Source: Scolanthus callimorphus
Lineage: Eukaryota > Cnidaria > Anthozoa > Actiniaria > Edwardsiidae
Assembly: GCA_033964015.1 (NCBI GenBank)
Contig: CM066925.1
Coordinates: 8,470,435 to 8,534,434, forward strand
Reading direction: 5' to 3'
Length of the DNA: 64,000 nt
This document shows, in pieces, positions 12,177-42,359 of this stretch (the stretch's first letter is position 1; each line of letters starts with the position of its first letter). A program made the translations under genes and the position numbers. Below the pieces are notes generated by a model. It was given only the letters and a program-made list of their open reading frames with translations. It did no database searches and was not told the DNA's origin.

Positions 12177-12203
12177 GACGACGTCACGGATCTAAATCAC
12201 CCT
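12177..12203 (-). repeat. Harbinger right terminal inverted repeat
   Basis: Ends CTAAATCACCCT, the inverse of the left end, preceded by GACGACGTC boxes. Followed by ATT at 12204-12206, the presumed target duplication. Confidence 0.85.
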
Positions 12204-12254
12204 ATTGACGGCGTCTCATCCCCCCCTGAGTTACCACCTGGGGAAAGGGAAAAT

Positions 12255-15200: not shown

Positions 15201-17906
15201 GTGTTCTCGGTGGATGTCGTAGATACGGTAAGAAAGAACTTCTACGTGGACGACTGCCTGAAGTCGGTCAGTAATGAAGAAGTAGCCATCCGAGTGATGA
15301 ACGATGTGTCCCAGCTGCTCAGTAATGGTGGATTCCACCTAACCAAGTGGGTCTCAAACTCTCCTGCGGTTCTACTTTCTGTACCCCCATCTGAAAGAGC
15401 TGGGTTTCTGAAAGAGATTGATTTCGATCATCTACCTACTGAACGTGCTCTCGGCATCCGGTGGGACGTTAATTGGGATGCATTCGGTTTCAAGATTGAA
15501 GTGAAGGAGAAGAGTCTGACGCGCAGAGGTATTCTATCGGTCATGAGTTCTATATATGACCCTCTAGGGTTCATCGCCCCAATCATCCTACCAGTCAGGA
15601 TTATGTTACGAGATCTGAATGTAAGGGGCTTAGACTGGGATGATCAGATCCCATCGGAGCATATTGAACGCTGGCGTTCCTGGTTGGAGGAATTACCCAA
15701 GCTACGTCACTTCAGTATTCCACGTCCTTTGAAACCAAAGGATTTCGGCGAAGTTCTATCGTGTCAGTTGCATACCTTTTGTGATGCATCTCAGCAAGGC
15801 TATGGCGCTGTTTCGTTTCTTCGACTTGTGAACAGCGAAGGAAATATTCATTGTGCATTTCTACTTGGCAAATCAAGGCAAGCGCCAAAGAAAGTAGTCA
15901 CGATTCCTCGCTTAGAGTTGTCAGCTGCGGTCGTAGCCACAAGGTTGAGTCAGATGGCTCAAGAGGAGTTAGATGTTAAGATTGATAACGTGTACTACTG
16001 GACGGACAGCACATGCGTGCTACGATACATCGCCAACGAACGGAAACGCTTCCATACGTTTGTAGCCAATAGGCTCGCCAAGATTCGTGAAGCTACTCGA
16101 CCGGATCAATGGAGATACGTGAATACAAATGTGAATCCGGCGGATGATGCCTCTAGAGGCTTAACGGTCCAAGAGCTGGTTGACAACCATCGCTGGATTA
16201 ATGGTCCAGATTTCTTGTGGAGGGAAGAAGATCGGTGGCCAGATCAAGTGGAGGACCTTGGCAGTGTTCCAGAATGTGATCCAGAAATCAGAAGGGAAGT
16301 TACCTCGTTCGCACTCTCGTGCACCTCTAGCAACCCGTTGGATAGAATGATCCAACACTTTTCGTCGTGGTATCGATTGAAGAGGTTCATTGCGTGGGTC
16401 CTGAGATACCGAGCCAATCTGCTTGACGCAAGTCGAAGACGCAAGCACGGAGAAGTCTCAAGGGAGCATCCCACAGATAAAGCTAAACTGTTGACCGTAG
16501 ACGAGTTGCGTATAGCAGAGGAGGAGCTGTTGAGGTATGTCCAGAGGCAGAGTTTTACAGATGAGTGGTCAGGTGTAGAATGTCCGGAGTCCACTGAGTC
16601 GGGTAAAGACGGATCAAGCAAGAAGAGAAGAAAGAAGATTGCTGACGGCATAAAGAAGAGTAGTTCGATCTACCGTTTGAGTCCAGTTGTTATCAATGGT
16701 CTGTTGTGCGTCGGTGGTCGTCTGGAACATGCACCACCGGAAGTCAACAAGCATCCCATCATACTTCCCAGCAAACATCATGTTGTTGACCTCATCGTGA
16801 GACACGTACATTCTACATCAGGGCATGTGGGCCAGGAACAAGTTTTATCGACGATCAGAGAGCGATTTTGGATAATCAAGGCTCGTGTGGCAGTCCGGAA
16901 GATAGTAACTCATTGTGTCAGTTGTCGCAAGCGACAAGCTCCAGTTTCTCGGCAGAAGATGGCAGACTTGCCAATTGAACGAGTGACGCCCGATAAACCA
17001 CCATTCTTCTTCGTAGGTGTTGACTGTTTTGGACCGTATACCGTCAAGAGAGGAAGATGGGAGATGAAGCGTTACGGTGTCTTGTACACGTGTTTGACGA
17101 CACGAGCTATTCATATTGAGATAGCGTTTAGCTTAGACACGGACTCCTTTATCAACTCAATAAGGAGATTCCTGGCAAGGAGAGGTGTTCCTGACGAAAT
17201 GCGATCAGATAATGGGAGCAATTTTACAAGCGGAAACAAAGAACTTCGTGAGGCAATTGCTCAATGGAACCAACTACAGATACACGAATACCTGCTCCAG
17301 AGGAATATCAGATGGATCTTTAACCCTCCGACGGCGTCGCATCAAGGTGGTATTTGGGAGCGTAGCATCCGAACGGTGAGAAAAGTGCTAGGTGCAGTGC
17401 TCAAAGAACAAGTGCTGGATGACGAGGCACTTTCAACACTCCTGTGCGAAGTGGAAGCGATCGTGAATAACCGACCGATAACGAAGAGCTCAGACGATTC
17501 GAATGACTTAGAAGCACTAACCCCGAACCATCTTCTTCTGTTACGTGCAGGGCCCAGCTTGCCCCCTGGAGTCTTTACCAGAGAAGATGTCTATATGAAG
17601 AGACGATGGAGGCATGTGCAATATTTAGCGGATGTCTTCTGGCGGAGATGGCTCAAGGAATATTTGCCACAGTTACAAGTACGACAGAAGTGGGTAAAAC
17701 CATCACGCTGCTATCAGGTAGACGATATTGTGCTTGTCGTTGATGAGAAGGTCCCGAGGTCCCGATGGCCGCTCGGTCGTGTTACAGAGGTCCACAAGAA
17801 CCGCAACGATGGGCTAGTGAGGAGCGTCACTCTAAAGACCGAGTCGTCAGTACTAGTCCGTCCGATCACCAAAATCGTACTCTTAGAGGGTGCAATTGAA
17901 GGATGA
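12255..17906 (+). CDS. BEL/Pao gag-pol polyprotein (main intact frame)
   Basis: An uninterrupted 1,883-codon frame. The frame is also open upstream to 12204, so the ATG at 12255 is internal to the original gag. Residues about 45-155 hold degenerate repeats of about 24 residues around DTGTP. A DUF1759-type gag domain follows (about 208-375), then two zinc knuckles (CX2CX3HX4C and CX2CX4HX4C, about 435-490). A BEL-type aspartic protease has DSG at 585-587. Reverse transcriptase has YVDD at 997-1000. RNase H has FCDAS and TDSTC. Integrase has an HHCC finger, DCFGP, SDNGSNF and WERS. A C-terminal DUF5641-like segment ends the protein. All core catalytic motifs look intact, so the damage to this copy lies in gag and the 5' LTR edge. 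Confidence 0.95.
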   Translation: MSHSQDTYLNNDSFTSLSKGIPKMAEPEEIKKSSFPFVERNISGLDSSQSVPDTGNPSPFSTFMNTVARASLNESSPVKLVTATGTPSPSNPFRCASTQSPADTGTPPVSNPISTQFITDVGTPSVGNPFKGPSPQSTADTGTTPLLDLFKCSPSQPVVDDSIPSYLNRPSVPVENKGATHDVSALAPDLVPSLLMQQQQHLISLTLPDAELPVFSGDPLEYRNYIRAFDNLIETKTVNPSMRLYYLVQSTTGDVKLLMESCLAMEPKRGYKTARDLLQSKYGQSYKVASAYVDRVVKTPQIKADDAAGLQIFSVLLTSCKNALKEIGYLSKIENPDTMRKVIERLPYGLRQRWRDKADEITEIHGREINISDIADFVEVKARAANHPIFGKIDGGLPCGPGKDKKKRKVFASQTRDPSPRGEANPVSDKPVLKCSFCDGPHWISRCESFKSKTVEDRIKFTRRRGLCDNCLMPGHRAADCPKDSFCKKENCQLQRKHSTFLHPSERSAERGTSSSERGHQTGEMQNRRDSRENEPQAQNGFVDVESRCSATGAGCATGLAIVPVRVRVKAKGGSRTIDTYAFLDSGSNTTFCTEQLLSKLGAEGKKTTLSLTTMDQDSVESECVVVELEVSNLQGENTLELSNVFSRPKLPVTIEDIPRQSDVNRWPHLSGIHLPEVNSAIDLLIGNDVPLAHEPKEVRRSEDGGPFAVRTIFGWTINGPLGRGRKGRRKANRIDAHADLSHQFERFCELEFSDSQFSEKKSMSVEDKRALSMMQESVKLVNGHYQIGLPWRVYPPPLKNNKVQAEHRLLMLERRLRKDSELHEKYSAFMDDLLEKGYARKVPDDQVSDTGQPSWFLPHHPVLNINKPGKVRVVFDCASKFQGRSLNDQLMQGPDLTNSLVGVLTRFRQEEVALMADVQSMFYQVRVEPKDSKYLRFLWWPEGNLENTPEEYQMSVHLFGGVSSPSCANFGLLQTAQDNASVFSVDVVDTVRKNFYVDDCLKSVSNEEVAIRVMNDVSQLLSNGGFHLTKWVSNSPAVLLSVPPSERAGFLKEIDFDHLPTERALGIRWDVNWDAFGFKIEVKEKSLTRRGILSVMSSIYDPLGFIAPIILPVRIMLRDLNVRGLDWDDQIPSEHIERWRSWLEELPKLRHFSIPRPLKPKDFGEVLSCQLHTFCDASQQGYGAVSFLRLVNSEGNIHCAFLLGKSRQAPKKVVTIPRLELSAAVVATRLSQMAQEELDVKIDNVYYWTDSTCVLRYIANERKRFHTFVANRLAKIREATRPDQWRYVNTNVNPADDASRGLTVQELVDNHRWINGPDFLWREEDRWPDQVEDLGSVPECDPEIRREVTSFALSCTSSNPLDRMIQHFSSWYRLKRFIAWVLRYRANLLDASRRRKHGEVSREHPTDKAKLLTVDELRIAEEELLRYVQRQSFTDEWSGVECPESTESGKDGSSKKRRKKIADGIKKSSSIYRLSPVVINGLLCVGGRLEHAPPEVNKHPIILPSKHHVVDLIVRHVHSTSGHVGQEQVLSTIRERFWIIKARVAVRKIVTHCVSCRKRQAPVSRQKMADLPIERVTPDKPPFFFVGVDCFGPYTVKRGRWEMKRYGVLYTCLTTRAIHIEIAFSLDTDSFINSIRRFLARRGVPDEMRSDNGSNFTSGNKELREAIAQWNQLQIHEYLLQRNIRWIFNPPTASHQGGIWERSIRTVRKVLGAVLKEQVLDDEALSTLLCEVEAIVNNRPITKSSDDSNDLEALTPNHLLLLRAGPSLPPGVFTREDVYMKRRWRHVQYLADVFWRRWLKEYLPQLQVRQKWVKPSRCYQVDDIVLVVDEKVPRSRWPLGRVTEVHKNRNDGLVRSVTLKTESSVLVRPITKIVLLEGAIEG

Positions 17907-18014: not shown

Positions 18015-18392
18015 TGTAAGATTTCGTTTCCGGTTCCGGTTCAGTCTGGGTTCCGTTCCAGTCAGTTGATTGACAGTTAGCAAAATACACGAGGTTAGTG
18101 ATTTACAGACGTCAACTTTGCTGTACGATTGAGGAATATGACTTGAAATCTGGACTAGAAATCTCATCTCGCTTAATATTTTGAGGGCAGATAATCGTAA
18201 GTAGTTGCCTTTCTTTGTAGTTTCATTAGGTATGACTTTTGTAGCTCACATTAGATTTGTTTTATAGTCGAACCACTTCACTTCACTTCACTTCACTTCA
18301 CTTCGCTTCATGTGATGTCAGAGACGAATAAAGTCATGTTGAGTTATGTGTGTCTCGAGATGTTTGCCCGTCACGAATTATTGAAATCTACA
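18015..18392 (+). repeat. BEL 3' LTR
   Basis: Starts TGTAAGATTTCG after a purine-rich AGGGGCCGGAA tract and ends TCTACA, giving canonical TG...CA ends and a length of 378 bp. It carries more CACTT repeats than the 5' copy. The minus-strand frame across it is a shadow. Confidence 0.9.
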
Positions 18393-18690
18393 GGAGGTAC
18401 CAAATATGGCGTCGCTTAGTTGATTTTGACCCCTAAAAGGTACCAAGAAGACGTATTTTCCCTTGTAATTTTCTCTCGTATTTTTTACGAGGGGAAATAC
18501 GTCCGAAATTCAGGCTACCAACAAGTGCGGTTTGCTTGATTTGCTAGAACGGACCTTTAACAGGTACCTATCTGGAAAAATCTTGACGCTTTCGAATTTT
18601 ACCACCTAAAAGGTACCAGAGGCCTGATTTTAAACCGTAAAAGGTACGACGAGCACCCCCGGCCCGAAAATACGGGAGTCAGCCCCCGGG
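18393..18690. repeat. partial copy of GGTACC-rich MITE
   Basis: Contains four AAAGGTACC/AGGTACC motifs and is collinear with 30955-31016 plus 40718-40940. It includes ACCTATCTGGAAAAA and a terminal GGGAGTC followed by a C run. Its left terminal part is missing where the BEL 3' LTR abuts. It also serves as an empty-site comparison for the giant foldback insertion. Confidence 0.75.
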
Positions 18691-18921
18691 GCGACGCTCC
18701 AGCGGCTGACAATCACGGGGGTTATTATAAATACATGCTAAATTATGCCTCAGTCTGTCTATAATTACGATACTTCTCGTTGTATTGATACCTGATAGCG
18801 ATTCGTGAGATTGTCCGGCGATACTTGAGAGCATGGGCGTATCTATCTGCCTGTACACCAAGGTTGTTGAGCTCAAGTGACCACGAGTAACAAAAAAATG
18901 AAAGCAAAAATTGACAACAAA

Positions 18922-26260: not shown

Positions 26261-26465
26261 TGTAGTGTTTTAATAAGTATTCTGTTATTTGATAGCTGCA
26301 TCTATAAATATCTATATATCTATGACGTATGTAACCACGTGATTCTTGTATTATATCAATGTATGTATTCTTAGTTTACTTCTGTTGAATAAAGTTCTTA
26401 CGTATGATCAGAGCTCTGCGTATACTATTCTCTATAGTAGAATAACCGAACCCTGAAACTCGACA
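26261..26465 (+). repeat. Gypsy 5' LTR
   Basis: TGTAGTG...CTCGACA, 205 bp. Contains TATAAATATCTATATATC near 26304 as a possible TATA-type promoter, and AATAAAG near 26389 as the polyadenylation signal. A TGG (26468) two bases after the LTR begins a likely primer-binding site. Confidence 0.93.
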
Positions 26466-26478
26466 ATTGGCGACGAGG

Positions 26479-29400
26479 ATGGCGACTTCAACTCTTGGAA
26501 CACTGGAACCTTTCGAAGCTTCAAAGGGGGATTGGAGTGCGTATACAGAGAGGTTCGACCAGTTTATCCTCGCAAACGATGTGGAGGGCGAAAAGAAGAT
26601 AGTCGCCACGTTTTTAACGATTGTGGGGAGCAAGACCTACAATTTGTTACGCGATCTGTTGGCTCCGGCGAAGCCGTCAGACAAAAAGTACAAGGAACTT
26701 ATAGAGGTCCTAGGAAAGCATTATGACCCGAAGCCACTGGTCATAGCTGAGCGATTTCACTTCCACAAGAGAGAACAGCAAGAGAGTGAAAGCGTTGCGG
26801 ATTATTGTGCCGCGTTAAAGAAAGCTTCGGAGCGTTGCGAGTTTAAAGCGTTCCTGGACGAGGCTCTGCGCGACAGATTTGTATGTGGCCTCAAGAGCAG
26901 AAACATACAGAAGAAACTGCTGGCCGAAAAAGATTTGACGTGGAACAAGGCTGTTGAAACTGCCCAAGCCATGGAATCAGCGGAAAAGCAAGCGAACAAG
27001 TTTGGAAACCTTCCAGCGGGAGTGAACGCCCTATCGTCACGTCCCCGAGGGCAACAGGGAAGACAAAGGAACTTTAAGAAAAAGGAATCCGGAAAACCTT
27101 GTTTCCGTTGTGGAGAGCAACATAACCCACAAGAATGCAGGTTCAAGACTGTAGAATGCCACAATTGTAAAAATACGGGACATATTAGTAAAGTGTGTAA
27201 GAAGCCGAAAGTGGAGGATGCCAAGAAGCGTGACATAAAACAACAACCGCGGAATTCTAACTTCCGATATTTAGACGAAGGAGATGATGATGATGGCCAA
27301 AATGAAGGGATGCTTGGAGATTTATTTAAGATTGGAGTGAACGGCTCGGAACCTTCAATAATGATTCCCGTGAAAATCAATGGAACTAATATGGATTTTG
27401 AGCTGGACACTGGAGCTTCTCTAAGCGTGATTTCTGAAGAGTTATGGAAGGAGAAAATGGGAGATGTGGAGTTAGAGGATTCTAACGTGCGCCTGAAAAC
27501 CTACACCGGAGAGGAATTAGAGATTGTGGGACAAACTGAGGTCAAAGTGAATTATGAAGAACAGGAGTGTGACCTTCCTATTCAAGTTATCAAAGGAAAT
27601 GGACCAGCGTTACTAGGACGTAACTGGTTAAGAGGTATTCGCTTGAATTGGGGATCTATCAGGCGTATAACGGAAGATCTTGATGACGTGCTGACAAAGC
27701 ACAAGGTAGTATTTAAGGACGAATTAGGAACGATGCGCGATGGTAAAGCTAAATTACACGTTAAGGCTGGGACCACCCCTAGGTTTTTCAAGCCCCGCTC
27801 AGTTCCGCACGCACTTAAGGGAGCGATCGAAAAGGAACTTGACCGTTTAGAAAGCATGGGAGCATTAGAAAAAGTAAGGTATTCGGAATGGGCCGCACCC
27901 ATTGTAGCGATCGTAAAGCCAGATAATAGCATAAGGCTATGTGGGGATTACAAAGTTACGGTTAACTCAGCTCTTGAAGTTGACCAGCACCCCCTCCCTA
28001 ATCCTGAAGATTTATTTGTTACCCTTAGTGGCGGGAAGAAATTTTCAAAGCTAGATCTTTCCAGAGCTTATCAGCAGATTTTGTTGGACGAAGAGTCCAG
28101 AGAATTTGTTACTATTAACACCCACAGAGGACTGTACCGGCCGAGGAGACTCCCCTACGGCGTCGCCTCCGCCAGTGCCATATTCCAGTCTAAGATAGAG
28201 CAAGTATTGCAGGGGATACCTATGGTAATATGTAGAGTAGATGATATTTTGGTTTCTGGCAAAACTGACCAGGAACACTTGCGCAATTTGGCAGGTTTAA
28301 GGCTAAAGCTCGCCAAATGTAAGTTCATGCAACCTTCTGTGGAATATTTAGGATATCGCGTGGATGCTAGTGGTCTGCATGCGATTGAAAAGAAAGTCGA
28401 GGCCATTAGAAATGCGCCAGCGCCAACTAACCAACAACAACTTCGATCATTTTTAGGTATGGTTAATTATTATTCAAAGTTCGTGAGTAACTATTCGACC
28501 ATTACACATCCGCTAAATGATCTTTTGCATAACGGAGTTAAATGGAAATGGGGCAACGCCCAGGAAAAAGCTTTTCGAGAATTGAAGGATAAGCTTTCTA
28601 GCGCACCAGTTTTGATGCACTACAATGAGGAATTACCGCTTAAGTTAGACACTGATGCTTCGAACTACGGAGTAGGCGCAGTGATTTCTCATGTTTTACC
28701 GAACGGCGAAGAGAGACCAATTGCTTTTGCGTCGAGAACTTTGAATCGCAGTGAGAAAAATTATGCCCAGATCGAGAAAGAAGCTCTTAGTATTGTTTTT
28801 GGGATTAAGAAATTCCATCAGTATTTGTACGGCAGGAAGTTTTTGTTAGTCACCGATCACAAGCCGTTGATAAGTCTTTTGGGTCCGAAAACCGGAATTC
28901 CAACCCTCGCAGCCGCAAGAATGCAGCGGTGGGCACTCTTACTATCCGCCTATCAGTATGATATCATTTATCGCTCTACCGATAAGCACGCGAACGCCGA
29001 CTGTTTATCGAGATTACCACTTGAATTTACTGATCGCAGCACAGAAGTCGACGATGCGAAAATGATAAACAAATTGCAAATCGAGGTAGCACTAGGAGTC
29101 GATCACATTCGAAGTGCTACGCGAGTCGATCCGGTTCTTTCACGAATTTTAGAGTATACACTATCGGGATGGCCGGATATGACCTCAACGGAAGCGATTA
29201 GGCCATATTTTAATAAGCGACACGAGATAACCACGGAAGATGGATGTTTATTATGGGAAATTCGTGTGATAGTACCTAAAGTTTTGAGAAACCAAGTTTT
29301 GGGTGAGTTGCACGAAGGGCATCCAGGCATAGTTCGGATGAAGTCCCTCGCGAGACTTCATGTTTGGTGGCCAGGTTTAGATGACGATATTTCTCGGGTT

Positions 29401-29538
29401 GTGCACAGTTGTTCAAAATGTCAATTGTCACGCAACCGACCGGCACAGGCACCATTGCATCCGTGGGATTGGCCTTGCAATCCTTGGCAGAGAATTCACG
29501 TAGATTTTGCCGGACCGTTCATGGGCAAAATGGGTTGA
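26479..29538 (+). CDS. Gypsy gag-pol, 5' part to integrase core
   Basis: The first true ATG is 26479, giving about 1,019 codons. Gag occupies about residues 1-200. Two zinc knuckles (CX2CX3HX4C and CX2CX4HX4C) lie at about 207-240. Protease DTG is at 310-312. Reverse transcriptase has LDLSRAYQQI and a VDD box with Asp at 588-589. RNase H begins at LDTDAS (about 724). Integrase has an H-H-C-C finger and HVDFAGP. Between the VDD box and the GLRLKLAKCKF segment the protein looks roughly nine residues shorter than usual, suggesting a small in-frame deletion. The frame ends at TGA 29536-29538 just after FMGKM, in the middle of integrase; the family continues in another frame. Confidence 0.92.
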   Translation: MATSTLGTLEPFEASKGDWSAYTERFDQFILANDVEGEKKIVATFLTIVGSKTYNLLRDLLAPAKPSDKKYKELIEVLGKHYDPKPLVIAERFHFHKREQQESESVADYCAALKKASERCEFKAFLDEALRDRFVCGLKSRNIQKKLLAEKDLTWNKAVETAQAMESAEKQANKFGNLPAGVNALSSRPRGQQGRQRNFKKKESGKPCFRCGEQHNPQECRFKTVECHNCKNTGHISKVCKKPKVEDAKKRDIKQQPRNSNFRYLDEGDDDDGQNEGMLGDLFKIGVNGSEPSIMIPVKINGTNMDFELDTGASLSVISEELWKEKMGDVELEDSNVRLKTYTGEELEIVGQTEVKVNYEEQECDLPIQVIKGNGPALLGRNWLRGIRLNWGSIRRITEDLDDVLTKHKVVFKDELGTMRDGKAKLHVKAGTTPRFFKPRSVPHALKGAIEKELDRLESMGALEKVRYSEWAAPIVAIVKPDNSIRLCGDYKVTVNSALEVDQHPLPNPEDLFVTLSGGKKFSKLDLSRAYQQILLDEESREFVTINTHRGLYRPRRLPYGVASASAIFQSKIEQVLQGIPMVICRVDDILVSGKTDQEHLRNLAGLRLKLAKCKFMQPSVEYLGYRVDASGLHAIEKKVEAIRNAPAPTNQQQLRSFLGMVNYYSKFVSNYSTITHPLNDLLHNGVKWKWGNAQEKAFRELKDKLSSAPVLMHYNEELPLKLDTDASNYGVGAVISHVLPNGEERPIAFASRTLNRSEKNYAQIEKEALSIVFGIKKFHQYLYGRKFLLVTDHKPLISLLGPKTGIPTLAAARMQRWALLLSAYQYDIIYRSTDKHANADCLSRLPLEFTDRSTEVDDAKMINKLQIEVALGVDHIRSATRVDPVLSRILEYTLSGWPDMTSTEAIRPYFNKRHEITTEDGCLLWEIRVIVPKVLRNQVLGELHEGHPGIVRMKSLARLHVWWPGLDDDISRVVHSCSKCQLSRNRPAQAPLHPWDWPCNPWQRIHVDFAGPFMGKMG

Positions 29539-30428
29539 GGTTGAGATCATGTCCAGTACTGTAAGTGAAGCTACTATAGATAGACTTCGTGACATGTTTG
29601 CTCGTTTCGGCTTACCAAAACAATTAGTGAGTGACAATGGACCGCAATTCATTTCTCACGAATTTCTTGAATTCATGAAGCGTAACGGCATTAAGCATAT
29701 ACGAGTAGCACCGTATCATCCGAGATCAAACGGACAAGCGGAACGATTTGTTCAAACTTTTAAGCAATATTTTAAGGCAGAGGGACCTGGTTCAATCAAG
29801 CAGAAATTAGCGCAATTTTTATTTTCTTATCGGAATACACCGAATAGTACAACAGGACAGACTCCAGCAGAATTAATGCTTAAGCGACGACCGCGCACCC
29901 GGTTAGATTTGTTGCGACCAGATCTCGCGAGTAAAACATTAAGTAAGCAGGCTGATCAAAAGATCAAGCACGACCGACATTCGAAGGAAAGAGAGTTTTT
30001 AATTGGTGAGCCTGTTCTAGTCCAAAACTTTCGGGGAGAACCGAAATGGCTCAAAGCTACAATATTTGAACGAACAGGACCTGTTTCTTACAAAGCTCTG
30101 GTGGGAGAGGAAATCTGGAAACGCCATGCCGATCAAATTCATAAACGACCGAAACGATGCAATTCCACCAGAACAAACGACTCTAGCTGATAATCCAACT
30201 AGCGATCAAACACCTATTGCCGATGCACGCGCACCACTAGTAGACTCAGAAACGGAGAGCACGCAAGCGCGCGCAGACATAACTAGCGAAAATGTTGAAA
30301 TAACGGAGAACGCCGCACGCAATGAAACTAGCACTGCTATAGCTGAACAAACTAGCACGGCCGAGCCTCAACCGCGCTATCCAACCCGTGAGCGAAAACC
30401 ACCCAGTAGATTAGGATTTGATGAATGA
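29530..30428 (+). pseudogene. Gypsy integrase C-terminal half and tail, frameshifted
   Basis: From about 29530 the integrase continues in a second frame (WVEVEIMS..., then SDNGPQF with the second catalytic Asp, then SNGQAERFVQ with the catalytic Glu) as far as 30190. The junction with the upstream frame lacks the usual residues between GKM and KWVEV. A short deletion at an AAATGG microhomology is the simplest explanation. A second shift occurs around 30120-30165: the WKRHADQI segment in one frame is followed by a Thr/Ala-rich tail and RYPTRERKPPSRLG in another, ending at TGA 30426-30428. Both lesions would prevent production of full-length integrase. Confidence 0.85.
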
Positions 30429-30463: not shown

Positions 30464-30668
30464 TGTAGTGTTTTAATAAGTATTCTGTTATTTGATAGCT
30501 GCATCTATAAATATCTATATATCTATGACGTATGTAACCACGTGATTCTTGTATTATATCAATGTATGTATTCTTAGTTTACTTCAGTTGAATAAAGTTC
30601 TTACGTATGATCAGAGCTCTGCGTATACTATTCTCTATAGTAGAATAACCGAACCCTGAAACTCGACA
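30464..30668 (+). repeat. Gypsy 3' LTR
   Basis: 205 bp, matching the 5' LTR except at one visible base. Preceded by a purine tract AGTGTGGGGGAA (polypurine tract) and followed by the CATTT target duplication. Confidence 0.95.
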
Positions 30669-31016
30669 CATTTGATAGGATAGTGAATTACTCATGGATT
30701 GCTTTCACGGCAGTTATGTGAAAGCTGCTATACAGTGTATTTTTACTATAAATACTTGTCAATAGAATCGGTTAGAGAGCATAAGGCTAAATGATGCAAA
30801 TGTTGCAAACTACTTTGGAGAAGACATCCTCCCTTCTAGTGTCCTCTGTTTAAAAAAAAAATTGGCAGCGAAACTTGATATTCTACACCCAGGGGGGACT
30901 CTTCCATTTTTCGGGTGGGGGTGCTCCTCAGGAACTTTAAATTTCACCTCTAAAAGGTACCATACATGGCGTCGCTGAGTTGACTTTGGCTCTAAAAGGT
31001 GCCAGCAAGTCATAAT

Positions 31017-31340
31017 ACCAAGGTGAAGCTAGCGGGCAACTCAGCGGGCAACTCGGTGAAGTTAGCGGGCAACTCAGAATGTGATGTTTTGGCCCATATC
31101 TCCCAAGGCTTTTGACCAATCATCATGAGACTCGCACACAAGTGTACAAATATGATAACAAATAATTTCACGTATATGTTTAATTACATATTATCAATCA
31201 CGTGATCCAGTGACGTTTTACATTTCAGCGGGCAAGTCGATAAATCGCTTTTTGGCCGATAAACTGTCCCCGTTTTAGCCGATTGTCTTCAAACTTTCAC
31301 TTGAGTGTACAAATAACAAAACAAACAAGAAGGTATATTT
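31017..31340 (+). repeat. foldback left terminus with AGCGGGCAACTC motifs
   Basis: The outer end carries three copies of AGCGGGCAACTC (31031, 31043, 31064) and a variant near 31228. The same 12-mer occurs in every array B unit, linking the termini to the array. Mirrored at 40390-40708. Confidence 0.85.
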
Positions 31341-32400
31341 AATTTGAAGATTACGTCATAAATCACGTGACCGTGGGAAAAAAGCGTATTTCTCGAAACC
31401 AGAATGGAAAAGTGCCAAAAAAACTTTGAAAATATGACAAATAGCCCCTGATCACATCAAAACATGCACTTTTGCAAGGTGACGTCATCAATCACGTGAC
31501 CGTGGGAAAATCGCGTATATCTCGAAACCAGAATGGAAAAGTGCCAAAAAAACTTCGAAAATATGACAAATAGCCCATGATCAGATCAAACATGCACTTT
31601 TGCAAGGTGACGTCATCAATCACGTGACCGTGGGAAAATCGCGTATTTCTCGAAACCAGAATGGAAAAGTGCCAAAAAAACTTCGAAAATATGACAAATA
31701 GCCCATGATCAGATCAAACATGCACTTTTGCAAGGTGACGTCATCAATCACGTGACCGTGGGAAAATCGCGTATATCTCGAAACCAGAATGGAAAAGTGC
31801 CAAAAAAACTTCGAAATATGACAAATTGCCCATGATCAGATCAAACATGCACTTTAGCAAGGTGACGTCATCAATCACGTGACCGTGAGAAAATCGCGTA
31901 TATCTCGAAACCAGAATAGAAAAGTGCCTAAAGAACTTCGAAAATATGACAAATAGCCCATGATCAGATCAAACATGCACTTTTGCAAGGTGACGTCATC
32001 AATCACGTGACCGTGGGAAAATCGCGTATATCTCGAAACCAGAATAGAAAAGTGCCCAAAAAACTTCGAAAATATGACAAATAGCCCATGATCAGATCCA
32101 ACATGCACTTTTGCAAGGTGACCTCATTAATCACGTGTCCGTGGGAAAATCGCATATATCTCGAAACCAGAATAGAAAAGTGCCCAAAAAACTTTGAAAA
32201 TATGACAAATAGCCCATGATCAGATCAAACATGAACTTTTGCAAGGTGACGTCATTAATCACGTGACCGTGGGAAAATCGCGTATTTCTCGAAACCAGAA
32301 TAGAAAAGTGCCTAAAGAACTTCGAAAATATGACAAATAGCCCATGATCAGATCAAAACATACACTTTCGCAAGGTGACGCCATCAATCACGTGACCGTG
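31341..32400 (+). repeat. array A, left arm (about 128 bp units)
   Basis: Eight to nine head-to-tail units. TGACGTCATCAATCACGTGA recurs at about 31480, 31608, 31736, 31863, 31991 and onward. Every unit also has CTCGAAACCAGAAT and ATGACAAATAGCCC. The outermost unit is more diverged. Each unit contains a perfect CRE-like palindrome (TGACGTCA) and an E-box palindrome (TCACGTGA). Confidence 0.92.
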
Positions 32401-32630
32401 CCAAAAAACAGCTCTTATTTTCTCGTTTGGAAAATATTACATTCAACCATTGCATTCAACCGAAAAAACATTAATACTAACTCACTACTAGCTCTATTAT
32501 TGTACATTATTTCTGGGCAAAACATCACTAAACTTCAACATGACGTAAAAGAGGTGACCGTGGGAAAGCGGCTCCGTTATATTATTCCGAGCTGGTGTTT
32601 TAGAGCATGTTTGTTCAACGTGCAACTCGA
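32401..32630 (+). repeat. linker between arrays A and B, left arm
   Basis: Unique within the arm and mirrored at about 39350-39590 (for example GAGGTGACCGTGGGAAAGCGG). No gene. The right copy has a short extra segment (GTTTGCTCCCGTTAAACAC) near 39543. Confidence 0.75.
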
Positions 32631-34906
32631 CACTACAGCGGGTAACTCGTTTTCTATTTTAAATGTGGTGTTCCTTGTTGTTTAAATCTTCGTTTTTGGC
32701 ATTTGTACATAGATAACTTATATTAAAACATATAGCGGGCAACTCTTCACTACAGCGGGTAACTCGTTTTCTATTTCAAATGTGGTGTTCCTTGTTGTTT
32801 AAATCTTCGTTTTTTGGCATTTGTACATAGAAAACTTCTATTAAAACATAAAGCGGGCAACTCTACACTACAGCGGGTAACTCGTTTTCTATTTCAAATG
32901 TCTCGTTCCTTGTTCTCCAATCTTCGTTTTGTACATAGAGAACTTCTATGTTGTTGTTCAAATGTTCATTTTTGGCATTTGTACATAGGCAAGGTCTATT
33001 AAAACATATAGCGGGCAACTCGACACTACAGCGGGTAACTCGTTTTCTATTTCAAATGTGGTGTTCCTTGTTGTTTAAATCTTCGTTTTTTGGCATTTGT
33101 ACATAGAAAACTTCTATTAAAACATAAAGCGGGCAACTCTACACTACAGCGGGTAACTCGTTTTCTATTTCAAATGTCTCGTTCCTTGTTCTCCAATCTT
33201 CGTTTTGTACATAGAGAACTTCTATGTTGTTGTTCAAATCTTCATTTTTTGGCATTTGTACATAGACAAAGTCTATTAAAACATATAGCGGGCAACTCGA
33301 CACTACAGCGGGTAACTCGTTTTCTATTTCAAATGTGGTGTTCCTTGTTGTTTAAATCTTCGTTTTTTGGCATTTGTACATAGAAAACTTCTATAAAACA
33401 TATAGCGGGCAGCTCGATACTACAGCGGGTAACTCGTTTTCTATTTCAAATGTGGTGTTCCTTGTTGTTTAAATCTTCGTTTTTTGGCATTTGTACATAG
33501 AAAACTTCTATTAAAACATAAAGCGGGCAACTCTACACTACAGCGGGTAACTCGTTTTCTATTTCAAATGTCTCGTTCCTTGTTGTTTAAATCTTCGTTT
33601 TTGGCATTTGTACATAGATAACTTATATTAAAACATATAGCGGGCAACTCTTCACTACAGCGGGTAACTCGTTTTCTATTTCAAATGTGGTGTTCCTTGT
33701 TGTTTAAATCTTCGTTTTTTGGCATTTGTACATAGAAAACTTCTATTAAAACATAAAGCGGGCAACTCTACACTACAGCGGGTAACTCGTTTTCTATTTC
33801 AAATGTCTCGTTCCTTGTTCTCCAATCTTCGTTTTGTACATAGAGAACTTCTATGTTGTTGTTCAAATCTTCATTTTTTGGCATTTGTACATAGACAAGG
33901 TCTATTAAAACATATAGCGGGCAACTCGACACTACAGCGGGTAACTCGTTTTCTATTTCAAATGTGGTGTTCCTTCTTGTTTAAATCTTCGTTTTTTGGC
34001 ATTTGTACATAGAAAACTTCTATAAAACATATAGCGGGCAGCTCGACACTACAGCGGGTAACTCGTTTTCTATTTCAAATGTCGCGTTCCTTGTTGTCCA
34101 ATCTAGTCGTTTTTTGGCATTTGTACACAGATAACTCCTATTAAAACATATAGCGGAATTCGACACTACAGCGAGTAACTCGTTTTCTATTTCAAATGTA
34201 GTGTTCCTTGTTGTTTAAATCTTCGTTTTTTGGCATTTGTACATAGATAACTTCTATTAAAACATATAGCGGGCAACTCGACACTATAGCGGGGAACTCG
34301 TTTTCTATTTCAAATGTGGTGTTCTTTGTTGTTTAAATCTTCGTTTTTTGGCATTTGTACATAGATAACTTCTATTAAAACATATAGCGGGCAACTCGAC
34401 ACTACAGCGGGTAACTCGTTTTCTATTTCAAATGTGGTGTTCCTTGTTGTTTAAATCTTCGTTTTTTGGCATTTGTACATAAATAACTTCCATTAAAACA
34501 TAGCGGGCAACTCGACACTTCAGCGGGTAATTCGTTTTCTATTTCAAATGTGGTGTTCCTTGTCGAAATCTATCAATGTTTTACTTTTATTATGTTACTA
34601 GTCATGATAACGTGGTGTTCCTTGTTGTTTAAATCTTCGTTTTTTGGCATTTGTACATAGATAACTTCTATTAAAACATATAGCGGGCAACTCGACACTA
34701 CAGCGGGTAACTCGTTTTCTATTTCAAATGTGGTGTTCCTTGTTGTCCAATCTTCGTTTTTTGGCATTTGTACACAGATAACTCCTATTAAAACATATAG
34801 CGGAATTCGACACTACAGCGAGTAACTCGTTTTCTATTTCAAATGTAGTGTTCCTTGTTGTTTAAATCTTCGTTTTTTGGCATTTGTACATAGATAACTT
34901 CTATTA

Positions 34907-35174
34907 CTGTGCGACTACGTCAACCGGGCCATTTTGTAAGAAGTTAGCCAATCAGAAAGCGAGTACAGAACAAAGGATCTCGACTTTCTTAAGATCTGAG
35001 ACACCGAAATATCGCTTTTCTCGTAAAAATTGTGGAATTTATGGGCAGAAATAACTTCAAAACACTTAATTACTACTCGTCAGATGTATTGCAAGTATTA
35101 AATTTGCTTAAAATGGTTTGGATCTCTAAATGACAAACTTTTTACGGGATGGCCCGGTTGACGTAGTCGCACAG
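34907..35174. mobile_element. 268 bp TA-flanked MITE inside array B, copy 1
   Basis: Ends CTGTGCGACTACGTCAACC and GGTTGACGTAGTCGCACAG are perfect inverted repeats, and TA lies on both sides (34905-34906, 35175-35176). Removing the element and one TA restores a normal array unit. The TA duplication is as in Tc1/Mariner-type elements. No coding capacity. Confidence 0.88.
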
Positions 35175-35645
35175 TAAAACATATAGCGGGCAACTCGACA
35201 CTACAGCGGGTAACTCGTTTTCTATTTCAAATGTGGTGTTCCTTGTTGTTTAAATCTTCGTTTTTTGGCATTTGTACATAGATAACTTCTATTAAAACAT
35301 ATAGCGGGCAACTCGACACTACAGCGGGTAACTCGTTTTCTATTTCAAATGTGGTGTTCCTTGTTGTTTAAATCTTCGTTTTTTGGCATTTGTACATAGA
35401 TAACTTCTATTAAAACATATAGCGGGCAACTCGACACTACAGCGGGTAACTCGTTTTCTATTTCAAATGTGGTGTTCCTTGTTGTCCAATCTTCGTTTTT
35501 TGGCATTTGTACACAGATAACTCCTATTAAAACATATAGCGGAATTCGACACTACAGCGAGTAACTCGTTTTCTATTTCAAATGTAGTGTTCCTTGTTGT
35601 TTAAATCTTCGTTTTTTGGCATTTGTACATAGATAACTTCTATTA

Positions 35646-35913
35646 CTGTGCGACTACGTCAACCGGGCCATTTTGTAAGAAGTTAGCCAATCAGAAAGCG
35701 AGTACAGAACAAAGGATCTCGACTTTCTTAAGATCTGAGACACCGAAATATCGCTTTTCTCGTAAAAATTGTGGAATTTATGGGCAGAAATAACTTCAAA
35801 ACACTTAATTACTCATCGTCAGATGTATTGCAAGTATTAAATTTGCTTAAAATGGTTTGGATCTCTAAATGACAAACTTTTTACGGGATGGCCCGGTTGA
35901 CGTAGTCGCACAG
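35646..35913. mobile_element. 268 bp TA-flanked MITE inside array B, copy 2
   Basis: Same length and same position within the array unit as the copy 739 bp upstream, with only a tiny difference (ACTACTCG versus ACTCATCG). Identical placement means it was copied with the surrounding array rather than inserted independently. Confidence 0.88.
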
Positions 35914-37413
35914 TAAAACATATAGCGGGCAACTCGACACTACAGCGGGTAACTCGTTTTCTATTTCAAATGTGGTGTTCCTTGTTGTTTAAATCTTCGT
36001 TTTTTGGCATTTGTACATAGATAACTTCTATTAAAACATATAGCGGGCAACTCGACACTACAGCGGGTAACTCGTTTTCTATTTCAAATGTGGTGTTCCT
36101 TGTTGTTTAAATCTTCGTTTTTTGGCATTTGTACATAAATAACTTCCATTAAAACATAGCGGGCAACTCGACACTTCAGCGGGTAATTCGTTTTCTATTT
36201 CAAATGTGGTGTTCCTTGTCGAAATCTATCAATGTTTTACTTTTATTATGTTACTAGTCATGATAACGTTCTGTGGTAAAAAAATGGGACATATCCCACG
36301 TGGGGAACCATCAATGCCGTAGAACAATGGAGGTTTGCCTAGTTCTTGCATGGATGGTTACTTAAATCTTCGTTTTTTGGCATTTGTACATAGATAACTT
36401 CTATTAAAACATATAGCGGGCAACTCGACACTACAGCGGGTAACTCGTTTTCTATTTCAAATGTGGTGTTCCTTGTTGTTTAAATCTTCGTTTTTTGGCA
36501 TTTGTACATAGAAAACTTCTATTAAAACATAAAGCGGGCAACTCTACACTACAGCGGGTAACTCGTTTTCTATTTCAAATGTCTCGTTCCTTGTTCTCCA
36601 ATCTTCGTTTTGTACATAGAGAACTTCTATGTTGTTGTTCAAATCTTCATTTTTTGGCATTTGTACATAGACAAGGTCTATTAAAACATATAGCGGGCAA
36701 CTCGACACTACAGCGGGTAACTCGTTTTCTATTTCAAATGTGGTGTTCCTTCTTGTTTAAATCTTCGTTTTTTGGCATTTGTACATAGAAAACTTCTATA
36801 AAACATATAGCGGGCAGCTCGACACTACAGCGGGTAACTCGTTTTCTATTTCAAATGTCGCGTTCCTTGTTGTCCAATCTTCGTTTTTTGGCATTTGTAC
36901 ACAGATAACTCCTATTAAAACATATAGCGGAATTCGACACTACAGCGGGTAACTCGTTTTCTATTTCAAATGTGGTGTTCCTTGTTGTTTAAATCTTCGT
37001 TTTTTGGCATTTGTACATAAATAACTTCCATTAAAACATAGCGGGCAACTCGACACTTCAGCGGGTAATTCGTTTTCTATTTCAAATGTGGTGTTCCTTG
37101 TCGAAATCCATCAATGTTTTACTTTTATTATGTTACTAGTCATGATAACGTTCTGTGGTAAAAAAAATGGGACATATCCCACGTGGGGAACCATCAATGC
37201 CGTAGAACAATGGAGGTTTGCCTAGTTCTTGCATGGATGGTTACTTAAATCTTCGTTTTTTGGCATTTGTACATAGATAACTTCTATTAAAACATATAGC
37301 GGGCAACTCGACACTACAGCGGGTAACTCGTTTTCTATTTCAAATGTGGTGTTCCTTGTTGTCCAATCTTCGTTTTTTGGCTTTTGTACATAGATAAGGT
37401 CTATTAAAACATA

Positions 37414-39350
37414 TAGCCAAAAAACGACGATTGGACAACAAGGAACGCGACATTTGAAATAGAAAACGAGTTACCAGCTGTAGTGTCGTGTTGCCCGCTA
37501 TATGTTTTAATAGAAGTTATCTATGTACAAAACGAAGATTGGAGAACAAGGAACGAGAAAACGAATTACCCGCTGTAGTGTCGAGTTGTCCGCTATATGT
37601 TTTAATGGAAGTTTTCTATGTACAAATGCCCAAAAAACGAAGATTGGACAACCAGGAACGCGACATTTGAATTAGAAAACGATTTACCCGCTGTAGTGTC
37701 GAGTTGCCCGCTGTATGTTTTAATAGAAGTTATCTATGTAGAAATGCCAAAAAACGAAAATTTAAACAACAAGGAACACCACATTTAAAATAGAAAACGA
37801 GTTACCCACTGTAGTGTCGAGTTGCCCGCTATATGTTTTAATAAAAGTTATCTATGTACAAATTCCAAAAAAACGAAGATTGGACAACAAGAAACACGAC
37901 ATTTGAAACAGAAAACGAGTTACCCGCTGTAGTGTCGAGTTGCCCGCTATATGTTTTAATAAAAGTTATCTATGTACAAATGCCAAAAAACGACGATTGG
38001 ACAACAAGGAACGCGACATTTGAAATATAAAACGAGTTACCCGCTGTAGTAAACGAGTTACCCGCTATATGTTTTAATAGAAGTTACCTATGTACAAATG
38101 CCAAAAAACAACGATTGGACAACAAGGAACGTGACATTTGAAATAGAAAACGAGTTACCCGCTGTAGTAAAGGAGTTACCCGCTGTAGTGTCGAGTTGTC
38201 CGCTATATGTTTTAATAGAAGTTTTCTATGTACAAATGCCAAAAAACGAAGATTGGACAACAACGAACACCCCATTTAAAATAGAAAACGAGTTACCCGC
38301 TGTAGTGTCGAGTTGCCCGCTATAGGTTTTAATAAAAGTTATCTATGTACAAATTCCAAAAAAACGAAGATTGACAACAAGAAACACGACATTTGAAACA
38401 GAAAACGAGTTACCCGCTGTAGTGTCGAGTTGCCCGCTATATGTTTTAATAAAAGTTATCTATGTAGAAATGCAAATAAACGACGATTGGAGAACAAAGA
38501 ACGAGACATTTGAAATAGAAAACGAGTTACCCGCTGTAGTATCGAGTTACCCGCTATATGTTTTAATAGAAGTTATCTATGTACAAATGCCAAAAAACGA
38601 CGATTGGACAACAAGGAACGCGACATTTGAAATATAAAACGAGTTACCCGCTGTAGTATCGAGTTACCCGCTATATGTTTTAATAGAAGTTACCTATGTA
38701 CAAATGCCAAAAACGACGATTGGACAACAAGGAACGCGACATTTGAAATAGAAAACGAGTTACCCGCTGTAGTATCGAGTTACCCGCTATATGTTTTAAT
38801 AGAAGTTATCTATGTACAAATGCCAAAAAACGACGATTGGACAACAAGGAACGCGACATTTGAAATAGAAAACGAGTTACCCGCTGTAGTATCGAGTTAC
38901 CCGCTATATGTTTTAATAGAAGTTATCTGTGTACAAATGCCAAAAAACGACGATTGGACAACAAGGAACGCGACATTTGAAATAGAAAATGAGTTATCAG
39001 CTGTAGTGTCCTGTTGCCCGCTATATGTTTTAACAGAAGTTATCTATGTACAAAACGAAGATTGGAGAACAAGGAACGAGAAAACGAATTACCCGCTGTA
39101 GTGTCGAGTTGTCCGCTATATGTTTTAATGGGAGTTTTCTATGTACAAATGCCCAAAAAACGAAGATTGGACAACGAGGAACGCGACATTTGAATTAGAA
39201 AACGATTTACCCGCTGTAGTGTCGAGTTACCCGCTGTATGTTTTAATAGAAGTTATCTATGTACAAATGCCAAAAAACGAAGATTGGACGACAAGGAACG
39301 CGACATTTGAAATAGAAAACGAGTTACCCGCTGTAGTGTCGAGTTGCACG
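37414..39350 (-). repeat. array B, right arm (inverted)
   Basis: About 16-17 units in the opposite orientation, beginning at CCAAAAAACGACGATTGG right after a truncated left-arm unit. There is no spacer at the polarity switch. Units here are more variable than in the left arm and lack the MITE insertions, so the arms have evolved separately. Open frames such as those starting MPKNDDW are shadows of the repeat. Confidence 0.9.
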
Positions 39351-39590
39351 TTGAACAAACATGCTCTAAAACACCAGCTTGGAATAATATAACGGAGCCG
39401 CTTTCCCACGGTCACCTCTTTTACGTCATGTTGAAGTTTAGTGATGTTTTGCCCAGATAATGTACAATAATAGAGCTAGTGAGTTAGTATTAATGTTTTT
39501 TCGGTTGAATGCAATGGTTGAATGTAATATTTTCCAAACGAGGTTTGCTCCCGTTAAACACAATAAGAGCTGTTTTTTTGGCACGGTCAC
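39351..39590 (-). repeat. linker between arrays B and A, right arm
   Basis: Inverse of 32401-32630, with a short extra segment near 39543. No gene. Confidence 0.7.
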
Positions 39591-40389
39591 GTGATTGATG
39601 ACGTCACCTTGCGAAAGTGTATGTTTTGATCTGATCATGGGCTATTTGTCATATTTTCGAAGTTCTTCAGGCACTTTTCTATTCTGGTTTCGAGATATAC
39701 GCGATTTTCCCACGGTCACGTGATTAATGACGTCACCTTGCGAAAGTGTATGTTTTGATCTGATCATGGGCTATCATATTTTCGAAGTTCTTTAGGCACT
39801 TTTCTATTCTGGTTTCGAGATATACGCGATTTTCCCACGGTCACGTGATTGATGACGTCACCTTGCAAAAGTGCATGTTTGAACTGATCATGGGCTATTT
39901 GTCATATTTTCAAAGTTTTTTTGGCACTTTTCCATTCTGGTTTCGAGATATACGCGATTTTCCCACGGTCACGTGATTAATGACGTCACCTTGCGAAAGT
40001 GCATGTTTTGATCTGATCATGGGCTATTTGTCATATTTTCAAAGTTTTTTTGGCACTTTTCCATTCTGTTTTCGAGAAATACGCGATTTTCCCACGGTCA
40101 CGTGATTGATGACGTCACCTTGCAAAAGTGCATGTTTGATCTGATCATGGGCTATTTGTCATATTTTCGAAGTTTTTTTGGCACTTTTCCATTTTGGTTT
40201 CGAGATATACGCGATTTTCCCACGGTCACGTGATTGATGACGTCACCTTGCAAAAGTGCATGTTTTGATCTGATCATGGGCTATTTGTCATATTTTCAAA
40301 GTTTTTTTGGCACTTTTCCATTCTGGTTTCGAGAAATACGCTTTTTTCCCACGGTCACGTGATTTATGACGTAATCTTCAAATTAAATA
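39591..40389 (-). repeat. array A, right arm (inverted)
   Basis: About seven units of the 128 bp repeat, each with TCACGTGATTGATGACGTCA or a close variant. Mirrors 31341-32400 with a slightly smaller copy number. Confidence 0.9.
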
Positions 40390-40708
40390 TACCTTCTTGT
40401 TTGTTTTGTTATTTGTACACTCAAGTGAGAGTTTGAAGACAATCGGCTAAAACGGGGACAATTTATCGGCCAAAAAGCGATTTATCGACTTGCCCGCTGA
40501 AACGTAAAACGTCACTGGATCACGTGATTGATAATATGTAATTAAACATATACGTGAAATTATTTGTTGTCATATTTGTACACTTGTGTGCGAGTCTCAT
40601 GATGATTGGCCAAAAGCCTCGGGAGATATGGGCCAAAACATCACATTCTGAGTTGCCCGCTAACTTCACCGAGTTGCCCGCTGAGTTGCCCGCTAGCTTC
40701 ACCTTGGT
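40390..40708 (-). repeat. foldback right terminus
   Basis: Inverse of 31017-31340, ending GCTAGCTTCACCTTGGT at 40708. Followed by the 9 bp AGACATAAT target duplication. Confidence 0.88.
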
Positions 40709-40945
40709 AGACATAATTTCCCTCATAACTTTCTTTCATATTTAATCCAAGGAAAATAGGTCTGAAATTGAGGCTACCAACAAGTTTAATTTGATTGATT
40801 TGCTAGAATGGACCTCTAACAGGTACCTATCTGGAAAAAAGTTTTCAAATTTATCCCCTAAAAGGTACCAGAAGCCTGATTTCAAACCCTAGAAGGTACA
40901 ACGTCACCCGCACCCCAAAAATAGGGAGTCCCCCCCTTGGATGCT

Positions 40946-42359
40946 ATGCTATGGCCTGTGATTCTTATTGTGTTTCTATTGTATTGTTGGTATTAATTAT
41001 TCATGCATATTTTAAGCATGAAATATAAACTTCTTGTCTTACTCGGTGTATAATAGGTTTGTTATTAAGTATGTTCTGCACAATCTTGCATCAGGGGGGG
41101 GGGGGGGGGGGGGGGGGTGATGGTAACCAGTTGGTCCAGTTGGTCTCAATCAAAGCAGAAGTTTGCTAATTGTGTAAAAGGGTCTAAAATAAACTGTCTT
41201 TATCGCTGAGTACAGGCCGTACTGTAATACATACCCTATCAGCAACAAAAAACTATACCTTACGGACCTCCTACCTGTTACCTATCCTCCTTGTGCCTAT
41301 GTCAGACCTCAGGAGCCCCAAAAACATACCACTCTAGCATACCCAACTACCATATGCGAGGGAGTGCCCCACCCCATGCTATTTGGGCAGTCGCACCTCC
41401 CGGTTGAAGTAGAGCTTAGAATTCGAGGGTGGACATCCTTAAATATGAAATTCCAGGGTGGGTGAGTGCAATTCCCAGAGTGGTCATGAGAAAATCACTG
41501 GAACTCCAAGGGTGGGTGGTTCAAATTAAAAAAATCCAGGGTGGGTAGTTGTGACTGAGGTCCTCAACAGGTGAGGACTGCCCATTCCTTCATACCCAAG
41601 AAATAAATTTGACTGTTCAAGTTTTAGCTCACACAATCCTGGTCTAAATTACATGTACGTTTTGCGAAAAAATGTCAAATAACGTATTGTACTTTGAAAA
41701 CATATGTAACCAGGAGCTCCGCTTTAGCCAGTGGCTAAATCTATATATTAATTTTTATGTTGTAGAGTAAAGACCCGCGTATAAGAACCTGGGTTTTAAG
41801 AACCTATCATGATTTTCCTGAGTTCCCTGAATGTTTTTCGTAAATTCCAGGGATCACAGGCGTTTGTCAAGCAATTTTGTTTGTATGTTTATCATATCTC
41901 AGTAAGGGAAGATAACAAACCCAGGTAAAGTAAAATGGTTCTAAGGGTTTGTTTACGGGATGATATTTTAGAGGGAATATTGTTCATGACTTTAGCGCGC
42001 GCTCGGCGAAGCAAGATGTACGTTTGTTCAAACTTGAATGAACATTTTTCTAAGCTTCTCATAACTCCAATAAAACAATGTTTCTCATGAAAGAGTTTGT
42101 GAAATTTGGCTAAAAAACGCATTGAAGATGGGCTTTATTAAAGCGATCTTACAGAAAAATGACATTCTATAGCTTTACAGTAAAGCAATTATAGCTGTTT
42201 ACGAACATAAATTTGCTGAAAGGCTGAAAACGTTCTTTGTGTTTGATTGCCAAATCCCATTGTACTACGTTTTTATATGCGGGACTTTGCTGTACTATTT
42301 TCGACGACGGCAACACAAACACAGCACAACTTTCAATTATAATCAGTGATTATCCTTAC
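40946..42359. other. gene-free region with low-complexity tracts
   Basis: No supported gene. Holds a run of 24 G (41094-41117) and a degenerate CCAGGGTGGGTG-type motif repeated about five times between 41420 and 41560. The run of G is a likely place for assembly error. Confidence 0.5.

What the first reader, a model, noticed from the sequence alone, without database searches (positions are those of the whole stretch)
31017..40708. 9.7 kb foldback transposon built almost wholly of two inverted tandem-repeat arrays
Exact inverted ends, a 9 bp target duplication with one mismatch, and mirrored order terminus-A-linker-B in both arms with no unique middle. The insertion site can be confirmed inside the window: the flanks rejoin to match the related MITE at 18445-18475 (CCA.AAG....AT..TTCCCT). 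The plan parallels Drosophila FB elements but at unusual size, and I know of no such element described in cnidarians. Sequence facts are direct; superfamily and novelty are inference.
Basis: partly seen in the sequence, partly recalled or inferred. Interest (0 to 1): 0.9.

Follow-up and report, generated by a model that had tools for sequence, protein, structure and literature searches.

The report
Giant foldback transposon of inverted arrays
This 9.7-kilobase stretch is one copy of a family of foldback DNA transposons built mostly from two mirrored sets of tandem repeats; it was likely moved by a transposase supplied from elsewhere in the genome, and one of its repeats also forms a separate satellite-like block.

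Summary
31017-40708 (9,692 bp) has inverted ends exact for 88 bp and 98.3% identical over 703 bp. Its mirrored order is terminus, 128-bp array, linker, ~117-bp array, with the arms meeting directly at ~37417. The flanks rejoin onto a related repeat at 18395-18687. The window's genome (597 Mb) holds 41 matches to the first 300 bp: eight two-ended copies plus 22 loci with one end. Four other copies have perfect 9-bp target duplications, this one 8 of 9; two have none and one cannot be tested. The no-middle state varies: C14, C85 and C281 share middle sequence, while this copy, C9 and C1 lack it, each with a different head-to-head junction. Each array carries a different 13-bp piece of the terminus. 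No transposase was found in the ORFs tested. The genome has 33 MULE-domain matches, none within 350 kb of a terminus match, so Mutator membership is inferred from the 9-bp duplication only. It is a large new member of the foldback class, close in plan to Tetris and Tm1. The cnidarian host was not tested.

The parts
31008..31016 (.). left copy of the 9-bp target duplication, AGTCATAAT
   Evidence: 8 of 9 match to the right copy
31017..31352 (+). left terminus (336 bp): three AGCGGGCAACTC motifs in the first 60 bp and one variant at 31227
   Evidence: 41 matches to its first 300 bp in the genome
31353..32400 (+). left array A, 128-bp units (8 full)
32407..32618 (+). left linker
   Evidence: 32400-32636 against its mirror: 230 identities, 1 mismatch, 24 gap positions
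32619..37417 (+). left array B, ~117-bp units (32 anchors), two motif sites in most units
34907..35174 (.). inserted 268-bp repeat with inverted ends and TA duplication inside array B, first copy
35646..35913 (.). second copy of the same inserted repeat, carried along by array duplication (268 identities over 271 bp)
36220..36361 (.). non-array segment of ~142 bp inside left array B (further copy at 37102-37244, 45-bp fragment at 34564-34608)
37416..37418 (.). point where the two arms meet head to head, with 2 bp of overlap (GC) and no middle sequence
   Evidence: read from the sequence
37418..39350 (-). right array B (15 anchors)
39351..39575 (-). right linker
39582..40372 (-). right array A (6 full units)
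40373..40708 (-). right terminus
40709..40717 (.). right copy of the target duplication, AGACATAAT
18365..18698 (+). related repeat without the insertion; matches the rejoined flanks (30922-31016 plus 40718-40950)
   Evidence: 261 identities of 321 aligned; BLAST 79.9% over 293 bp, 18395-18687

Best explanation
The element is a non-coding foldback DNA transposon that was likely inserted by cut-and-paste with a 9-bp target duplication, predicted to be driven in trans by a Mutator-type (MULE) transposase that would bind the many copies of its terminal motif. Shown: inverted termini, 9-bp duplications at several copies, a related repeat that lacks the insert, and a large folded form present at two unrelated sites. 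Shown: the terminal motif AGCGGGCAACTC occurs 87 times in the element (up to one mismatch), always pointing inward, and nowhere else in the window. Inferred: these motifs are transposase sites; the arrays grow by unequal exchange or slippage, mainly in one arm of a copy; exchange between inverted arrays deletes the middle and leaves a head-to-head element. Inferred: the transposase comes from another element that was not identified.
For: Genome search: 41 matches to the terminus, eight two-ended copies. Perfect 9-bp duplications at C9, C14, C7 and C85, 8 of 9 here. Rejoined flanks fit a related repeat without the insert. C14 and C85 share 3,016 bp of arm at 96.8% and 759 bp of middle at 99.3%, at different sites. 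Motif: 87 hits in the window, all inside the element, chance mean 0.14; in the seven copies counted, all 463 hits point inward around a single switch point. Each array shares a 13-bp exact piece with the terminus (A: ATCAATCACGTGA; B: TAGCGGGCAACTC), reached by 0 of 200 shuffles each. Head-to-head junctions of window, C9 and C1 lie at different unit positions. In the longer B arm the closest unit is in the same arm for 31 of 32 (window), 23 of 31 (C1), 14 of 17 (C9), 18 of 22 (C14), 33 of 39 (C85) and 13 of 16 (C7) units. MULE domains exist in the genome: 33 matches, all over the Pfam cut-off. Galileo transposase sites lie in its TIR repeats (PMC3688188, sections read).
Against: No transposase was found in the ORFs tested from the family (20 ORFs; not all ORFs were tested). 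None of the 33 MULE matches is within 350 kb of a terminus match (25 of 33 share a contig with one). None of 12 MULE loci examined (of 33) shows similarity to the family within 1.5 kb. Two of seven testable two-ended copies (C1, C3) lack a duplication. 22 further loci carry one end only; 11 examined break off at different interior points with no second duplication, which plain cut-and-paste does not explain. Motif columns in array B are not significantly better conserved than the rest (p = 0.079 with non-independent units). In C281 the longer-arm rule fails (same arm for 1 of 11 units), and shorter arms also show same-arm neighbours in part: window 8 of 15, C14 6 of 11, C7 7 of 10, C281 2 of 4, C85 1 of 7, C9 0 of 4, C1 0 of 2.
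Confidence: 0.8

Rival explanations
1. The foldback is mobilised by a transposase of another superfamily (P/Galileo-like, Merlin or other), the plan being convergent.
For: Foldback plans arose in several superfamilies: Galileo carries a P-type transposase (PMC3573991 passages; PMC3169594 passages). No MULE was linked to the family.
Against: Duplications are exactly 9 bp in four copies; Galileo's flanking sequences are 7 bp (PMC3573991). MULE duplications are 8-11 bp (PMC6446971 passages). Merlin makes 8-9 bp by recall and was not searched.
Confidence: 0.15
2. The structure is an assembly artefact from inverted or collapsed repeats.
For: Array-rich inverted repeats are hard to assemble; the C22 contig ends inside B units.
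Against: Arms differ in length and sequence; the plan recurs in further copies with their own flanks and duplications; flanks rejoin onto a related repeat.
Confidence: 0.03
3. A locally amplified satellite or an inverted duplication that never transposed as a unit.
For: B units also form a 7.6-kb block without terminus, array A or linker matches on C22; C1 and C3 lack duplications.
Against: Defined ends with 9-bp duplications at five places, one of them 8 of 9; shared large arms at two unrelated sites.
Confidence: 0.02

Closest known systems
Tetris (Drosophila virilis foldback; PMC4079207, abstract and sections 10, 17, 19 read)
   Same: Non-autonomous; terminus, then ~220-bp tandem repeats in both inverted arms; 8-10-bp duplications; terminus and repeat share a stretch; repeats also form satellite-like arrays; no autonomous copy found.
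   Different: Tetris TIRs reach 1,735 bp with one ~220-bp array and a middle domain; here the arms are about 6.4 and 3.3 kb, each with two arrays, and this copy has no middle. No sequence comparison was made.
Tm1 (Meloidogyne Mutator/foldback; PMC3169594, abstract, sections 5 and 9 and passages read)
   Same: Inverted arms made of repeated units that vary in number between ends; 9-bp duplications; non-coding forms.
   Different: Tm1 units are ~14 bp and one form encodes a Phantom-type MULE transposase; none was found here.
Galileo (P superfamily; PMC3688188 abstract and sections 12, 13; PMC3573991 abstract start in the listing, and passages)
   Same: Long internally repetitive inverted arms; transposase-binding sites recur in the tandem repeats; the longest arms occur in copies without transposase.
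   Different: 7-bp flanking duplications and a P-type transposase; the longest arms were ~1.26 kb in D. mojavensis.
Drosophila FB elements (recalled; only mentioned in the papers read)
   Same: Inverted arms of tandem repeats with 9-bp duplications (recalled).
   Different: Repeat units are short (recalled); no sequence comparison was made.

Membership tests
Foldback elements (structural class) | long inverted arms containing tandem repeats | tested here: met
Foldback elements (structural class) | target-site duplications | tested here: met
   4 perfect and one 8 of 9, among 7 testable of 8 two-ended copies; 2 have none
Foldback elements (structural class) | several dispersed copies with variable arm length | tested here: met
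Mutator (MULE) superfamily | 8-11-bp duplication | tested here: met
   range from PMC6446971
Mutator (MULE) superfamily | MULE transposase encoded between the same termini | tested here: not met
   none of 33 MULE matches within 350 kb of any of 41 terminus matches
Mutator (MULE) superfamily | termini resembling those of an autonomous MULE in the same genome | tested here: inconclusive
   no similarity in 12 of 33 loci, only 1.5 kb either side read
Galileo / P superfamily | 7-bp duplication | tested here: not met
   9 bp
Galileo / P superfamily | P-type transposase | not tested
   no search for that family was run; the ORFs scanned gave no transposase
Tetris | sequence homology to Tetris TIRs | not tested
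   no Tetris sequence was fetched

The most novel reading that the evidence does not exclude
A foldback family whose unit of success is the repeated binding site itself: each arm carries two arrays, each amplifying a different 13-bp piece of the terminus; copies discard the middle again and again, grow one arm, and shed the B array as a free satellite of alternating inverted blocks.
Probability: 0.35. Interest if true: 0.65.

Novelty: new member of a known kind. Interest (0 to 1): 0.5.

Why it matters
The family gives a natural series of copies, middle-bearing and middle-less, 5.3 to 14 kb long, in one assembly. It makes testable how foldback arms grow, whether repeated motifs raise transposase binding, how middles are lost, and how a transposon array becomes satellite DNA. 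It would also extend foldback elements to a new host group if the host is a cnidarian, which was not tested.

Tried and rejected
A first coverage count bridged the ~142-bp segments with gapped alignments; (ungapped) replaces it. Pattern scans of viral contigs and genome contigs found nothing. Rfam found nothing over its thresholds in 30500-41200.

Pfam scans of ten ORFs from L009, L022, L024 and L025 gave no transposase: L009's long frame matched RVT_1 and ALKBH8_N over cut-off (nested insertion), L024 matched Dam just under cut-off, three L022 ORFs gave weak matches under cut-off, and the rest nothing. Ten ORFs from the middles of C7, C14 and C281 and from an arm segment of C85 gave nothing over cut-off. 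The longest L022 ORF reads to me like a Penelope-like reverse transcriptase; that label is recalled, and Pfam gave no such match. The 3.4-kb stretch in C1 matches none of the other middles.

Homogenisation of the two ends of a copy by gene conversion was considered. The terminus tree does not put the two ends of a copy together, though its support is weak, so inheritance of a symmetric ancestor is preferred. Array A keeps mirror order (4 of 720 orders, the true one included, do as well or better). A divergent relative on C11 (78% over 82 bp) has three further local matches and no partner end found (40 of 943 candidates scored). The protein search with the Harbinger-type ORF gave 779 hits, and no host name among the 120 listed. 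A search for further copies of the shared middle did not complete.

Papers: PMC3169594 (abstract, sections 5 and 9, passages), PMC4079207 (abstract, sections 10, 17, 19), PMC3688188 (abstract, sections 12, 13), PMC3573991 (abstract start in listing, passages), PMC6446971 and PMC8504770 (abstract start in listing, passages), PMC2872659 (abstract, passages). Searches for foldback elements in cnidarians or corals: 20 of 45 papers listed; 0 papers; 15 of 25 listed; 12 of 1,143 listed; the titles and abstract starts shown name none. The library is partial.
Full report
Observation. The interval 31017-40708 was read directly and analysed for repeats. The two ends are exact inverted copies for 88 bp and differ at 12 of the first 703 positions. 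Inward from each end come a 336-bp terminus, array A of 128-bp units, a linker, and array B of ~117-bp units; the right arm mirrors the left. The B arrays are unequal: 32 unit anchors on the left and 15 on the right. The arms meet at about 37417 with a 2-bp overlap and no unique middle. A and B units cover 7,535 of 9,692 bp; with terminus and linker 88% is covered. The rest is mainly a 268-bp TA-flanked inserted repeat present twice and a ~142-bp segment present twice plus a fragment. The two inserted-repeat copies are nearly identical (268 identities over 271 bp), so the array was likely duplicated after that insertion.

Insertion. The flanks show AGTCATAAT and AGACATAAT. Because the next base outward pairs in the inverted repeat, this copy alone allows 7, 8 or 9 bp. 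The rejoined flanks align without a gap at the junction to a related repeat at 18365-18698.

Family. The genome search became reachable: 597 Mb, 302 contigs, the window on C15. The first 300 bp of the element give 41 matches (40 of 44 candidates scored). Seventeen belong to eight two-ended copies: the window, C1, C9, C14, C85, C7, C281 (left end cut) and C3 (right end interrupted). The other 24 lie at 22 loci with one end; 15 of these 22 were fetched in part, with at most 10 kb read. Duplications: C9 CAGACTTCA, C14 GTTTTTCTT, C7 ACATTTTTT and C85 AAAAAATTA are 9 of 9, the window 8 of 9, C1 and C3 none; C281 lacks its left end. At C85 the left end begins ATTAAGG instead of ACCAAGG.

Anatomy across copies. 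Seven of the eight two-ended copies were compared in full (C3 was left out because its ends are broken up). B anchors in the two arms are 32/15 (window), 3/31 (C1), 4/17 (C9), 11/22 (C14), 7/39 (C85), 10/16 (C7) and 5/12 (C281). Lengths are 9,692, 10,021, 5,283, 13,985, 9,871, 5,459 and 12,589 bp. Terminus, arrays and linker cover 88, 64, 92, 48, 75, 83 and 29% of them. Middle sequence is shared by C14 and C85 (99.3% over 759 bp) and by C14 and C281 (91% over 751 bp); C7 has ~0.8 kb of middle that matches none of these at the threshold used. The window, C9 and C1 lack a middle at the arm junction, and their junctions fall at different places in the B unit. Repeated loss by exchange between inverted B units is the inferred route. 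C1 carries a 3.4-kb stretch in one B arm with a reverse-transcriptase frame, unlike the other middles. C14 and C85 share 3,016 bp of left arm at 96.8% at different sites with different duplications, so a large folded form moved.

Array dynamics. Array A keeps mirror order between arms in the window: 4 of 720 orders, the true one included, do as well or better. Array B does not; most units resemble units of the same arm. Over 221 of 224 B units of seven copies, the longer arm shows same-arm nearest neighbours in most units for six copies but not for C281; shorter arms are mixed. Termini differ by 1-8 positions between the two ends of a copy (six copies) and in none of the six are the two ends closer to each other than to every other copy.

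Motif. AGCGGGCAACTC with up to one mismatch occurs 87 times in the window, all inside the element; the chance mean is 0.14. In the seven copies all 463 occurrences point inward around one switch point. Three lie in the first 60 bp and most B units have two, 20 bp apart. Array A instead shares ATCAATCACGTGA with the terminus and array B shares TAGCGGGCAACTC; 0 of 200 shuffles reach either. In array B the motif columns are not significantly more conserved (p = 0.079). Their role as transposase sites is therefore inference by analogy with Galileo, where binding to sites in the arm repeats was measured (PMC3688188).

Transposase. The window element has one stop-to-stop frame of 120 aa or more, and it lies in array B. 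Pfam found no transposase in 20 ORFs tested from middles, an arm segment and single-end loci; not every ORF was tested. The genome has 33 MULE-domain matches, all over the cut-off. 25 share a contig with a terminus match, the closest 350 kb away. 12 of the 33 loci were read and show no family similarity within 1.5 kb. Mutator is the best inference from the 9-bp duplication (8-11 bp in MULEs, PMC6446971) but membership is not shown.

Related sequences. B units occur outside terminus-bearing copies: on C22 a 7.6-kb stretch up to the contig end holds 66 unit anchors in alternating blocks of orientation, with no terminus, array A or linker match. This parallels the Tetris satellite (PMC4079207). 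A divergent relative lies on C11.

Against the reading. Two copies lack duplications, and 11 single-ended loci examined break at different interior positions without a second duplication; their origin is unexplained.

Verdict. A real, non-coding foldback transposon family whose copies have very similar ends; unusual in size and in having two arrays per arm, otherwise of a known kind.

Noticed in passing
L048 (G000:C22:1514800-1522435): 7.6 kb of B units without terminus, array A or linker matches, in alternating orientation blocks, running to the contig end: satellite-like.
   Followed up: partly
L021, L022, L024, L025, L027, L028, L030-L034: Eleven loci with an outer end of the family whose similarity stops at different interior points, without a second duplication. 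L030 and L031 share flanks and are likely one duplicated locus.
   Followed up: partly
34907-35174 and 35646-35913: 268-bp TA-flanked repeat with ~24-bp inverted ends inserted in array B and then duplicated with it.
   Followed up: partly
36220-36361 and 37102-37244: ~142-bp non-array segment within left array B, origin unknown; not seen in the right arm, and no match to the other copies' middles.
   Followed up: partly
L029 (G000:C11:9753600-9756600): Decayed relative with a 78% similar end and an array-A-like core 1.8 kb inside; three further local matches.
   Followed up: partly
7009-8122: DDE_Tnp_4 (Harbinger-type by recall) transposase in two overlapping frames.
   Followed up: no
12165-17906 and 26446-30190: Open Pao/BEL-type frame of 1,913 aa, and a Gypsy-type element (RT, RNase H, integrase zinc-binding domain) just left of the foldback.
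   Followed up: no
array A units, 31353-32400 and 39582-40372: Most units carry TCACGTGA and many TGACGTCA: TCACGTGA occurs 17 times in the element and 3 times in the rest of the window, TGACGTCA 12 and 6; a promoter-like role was not tested.
   Followed up: no
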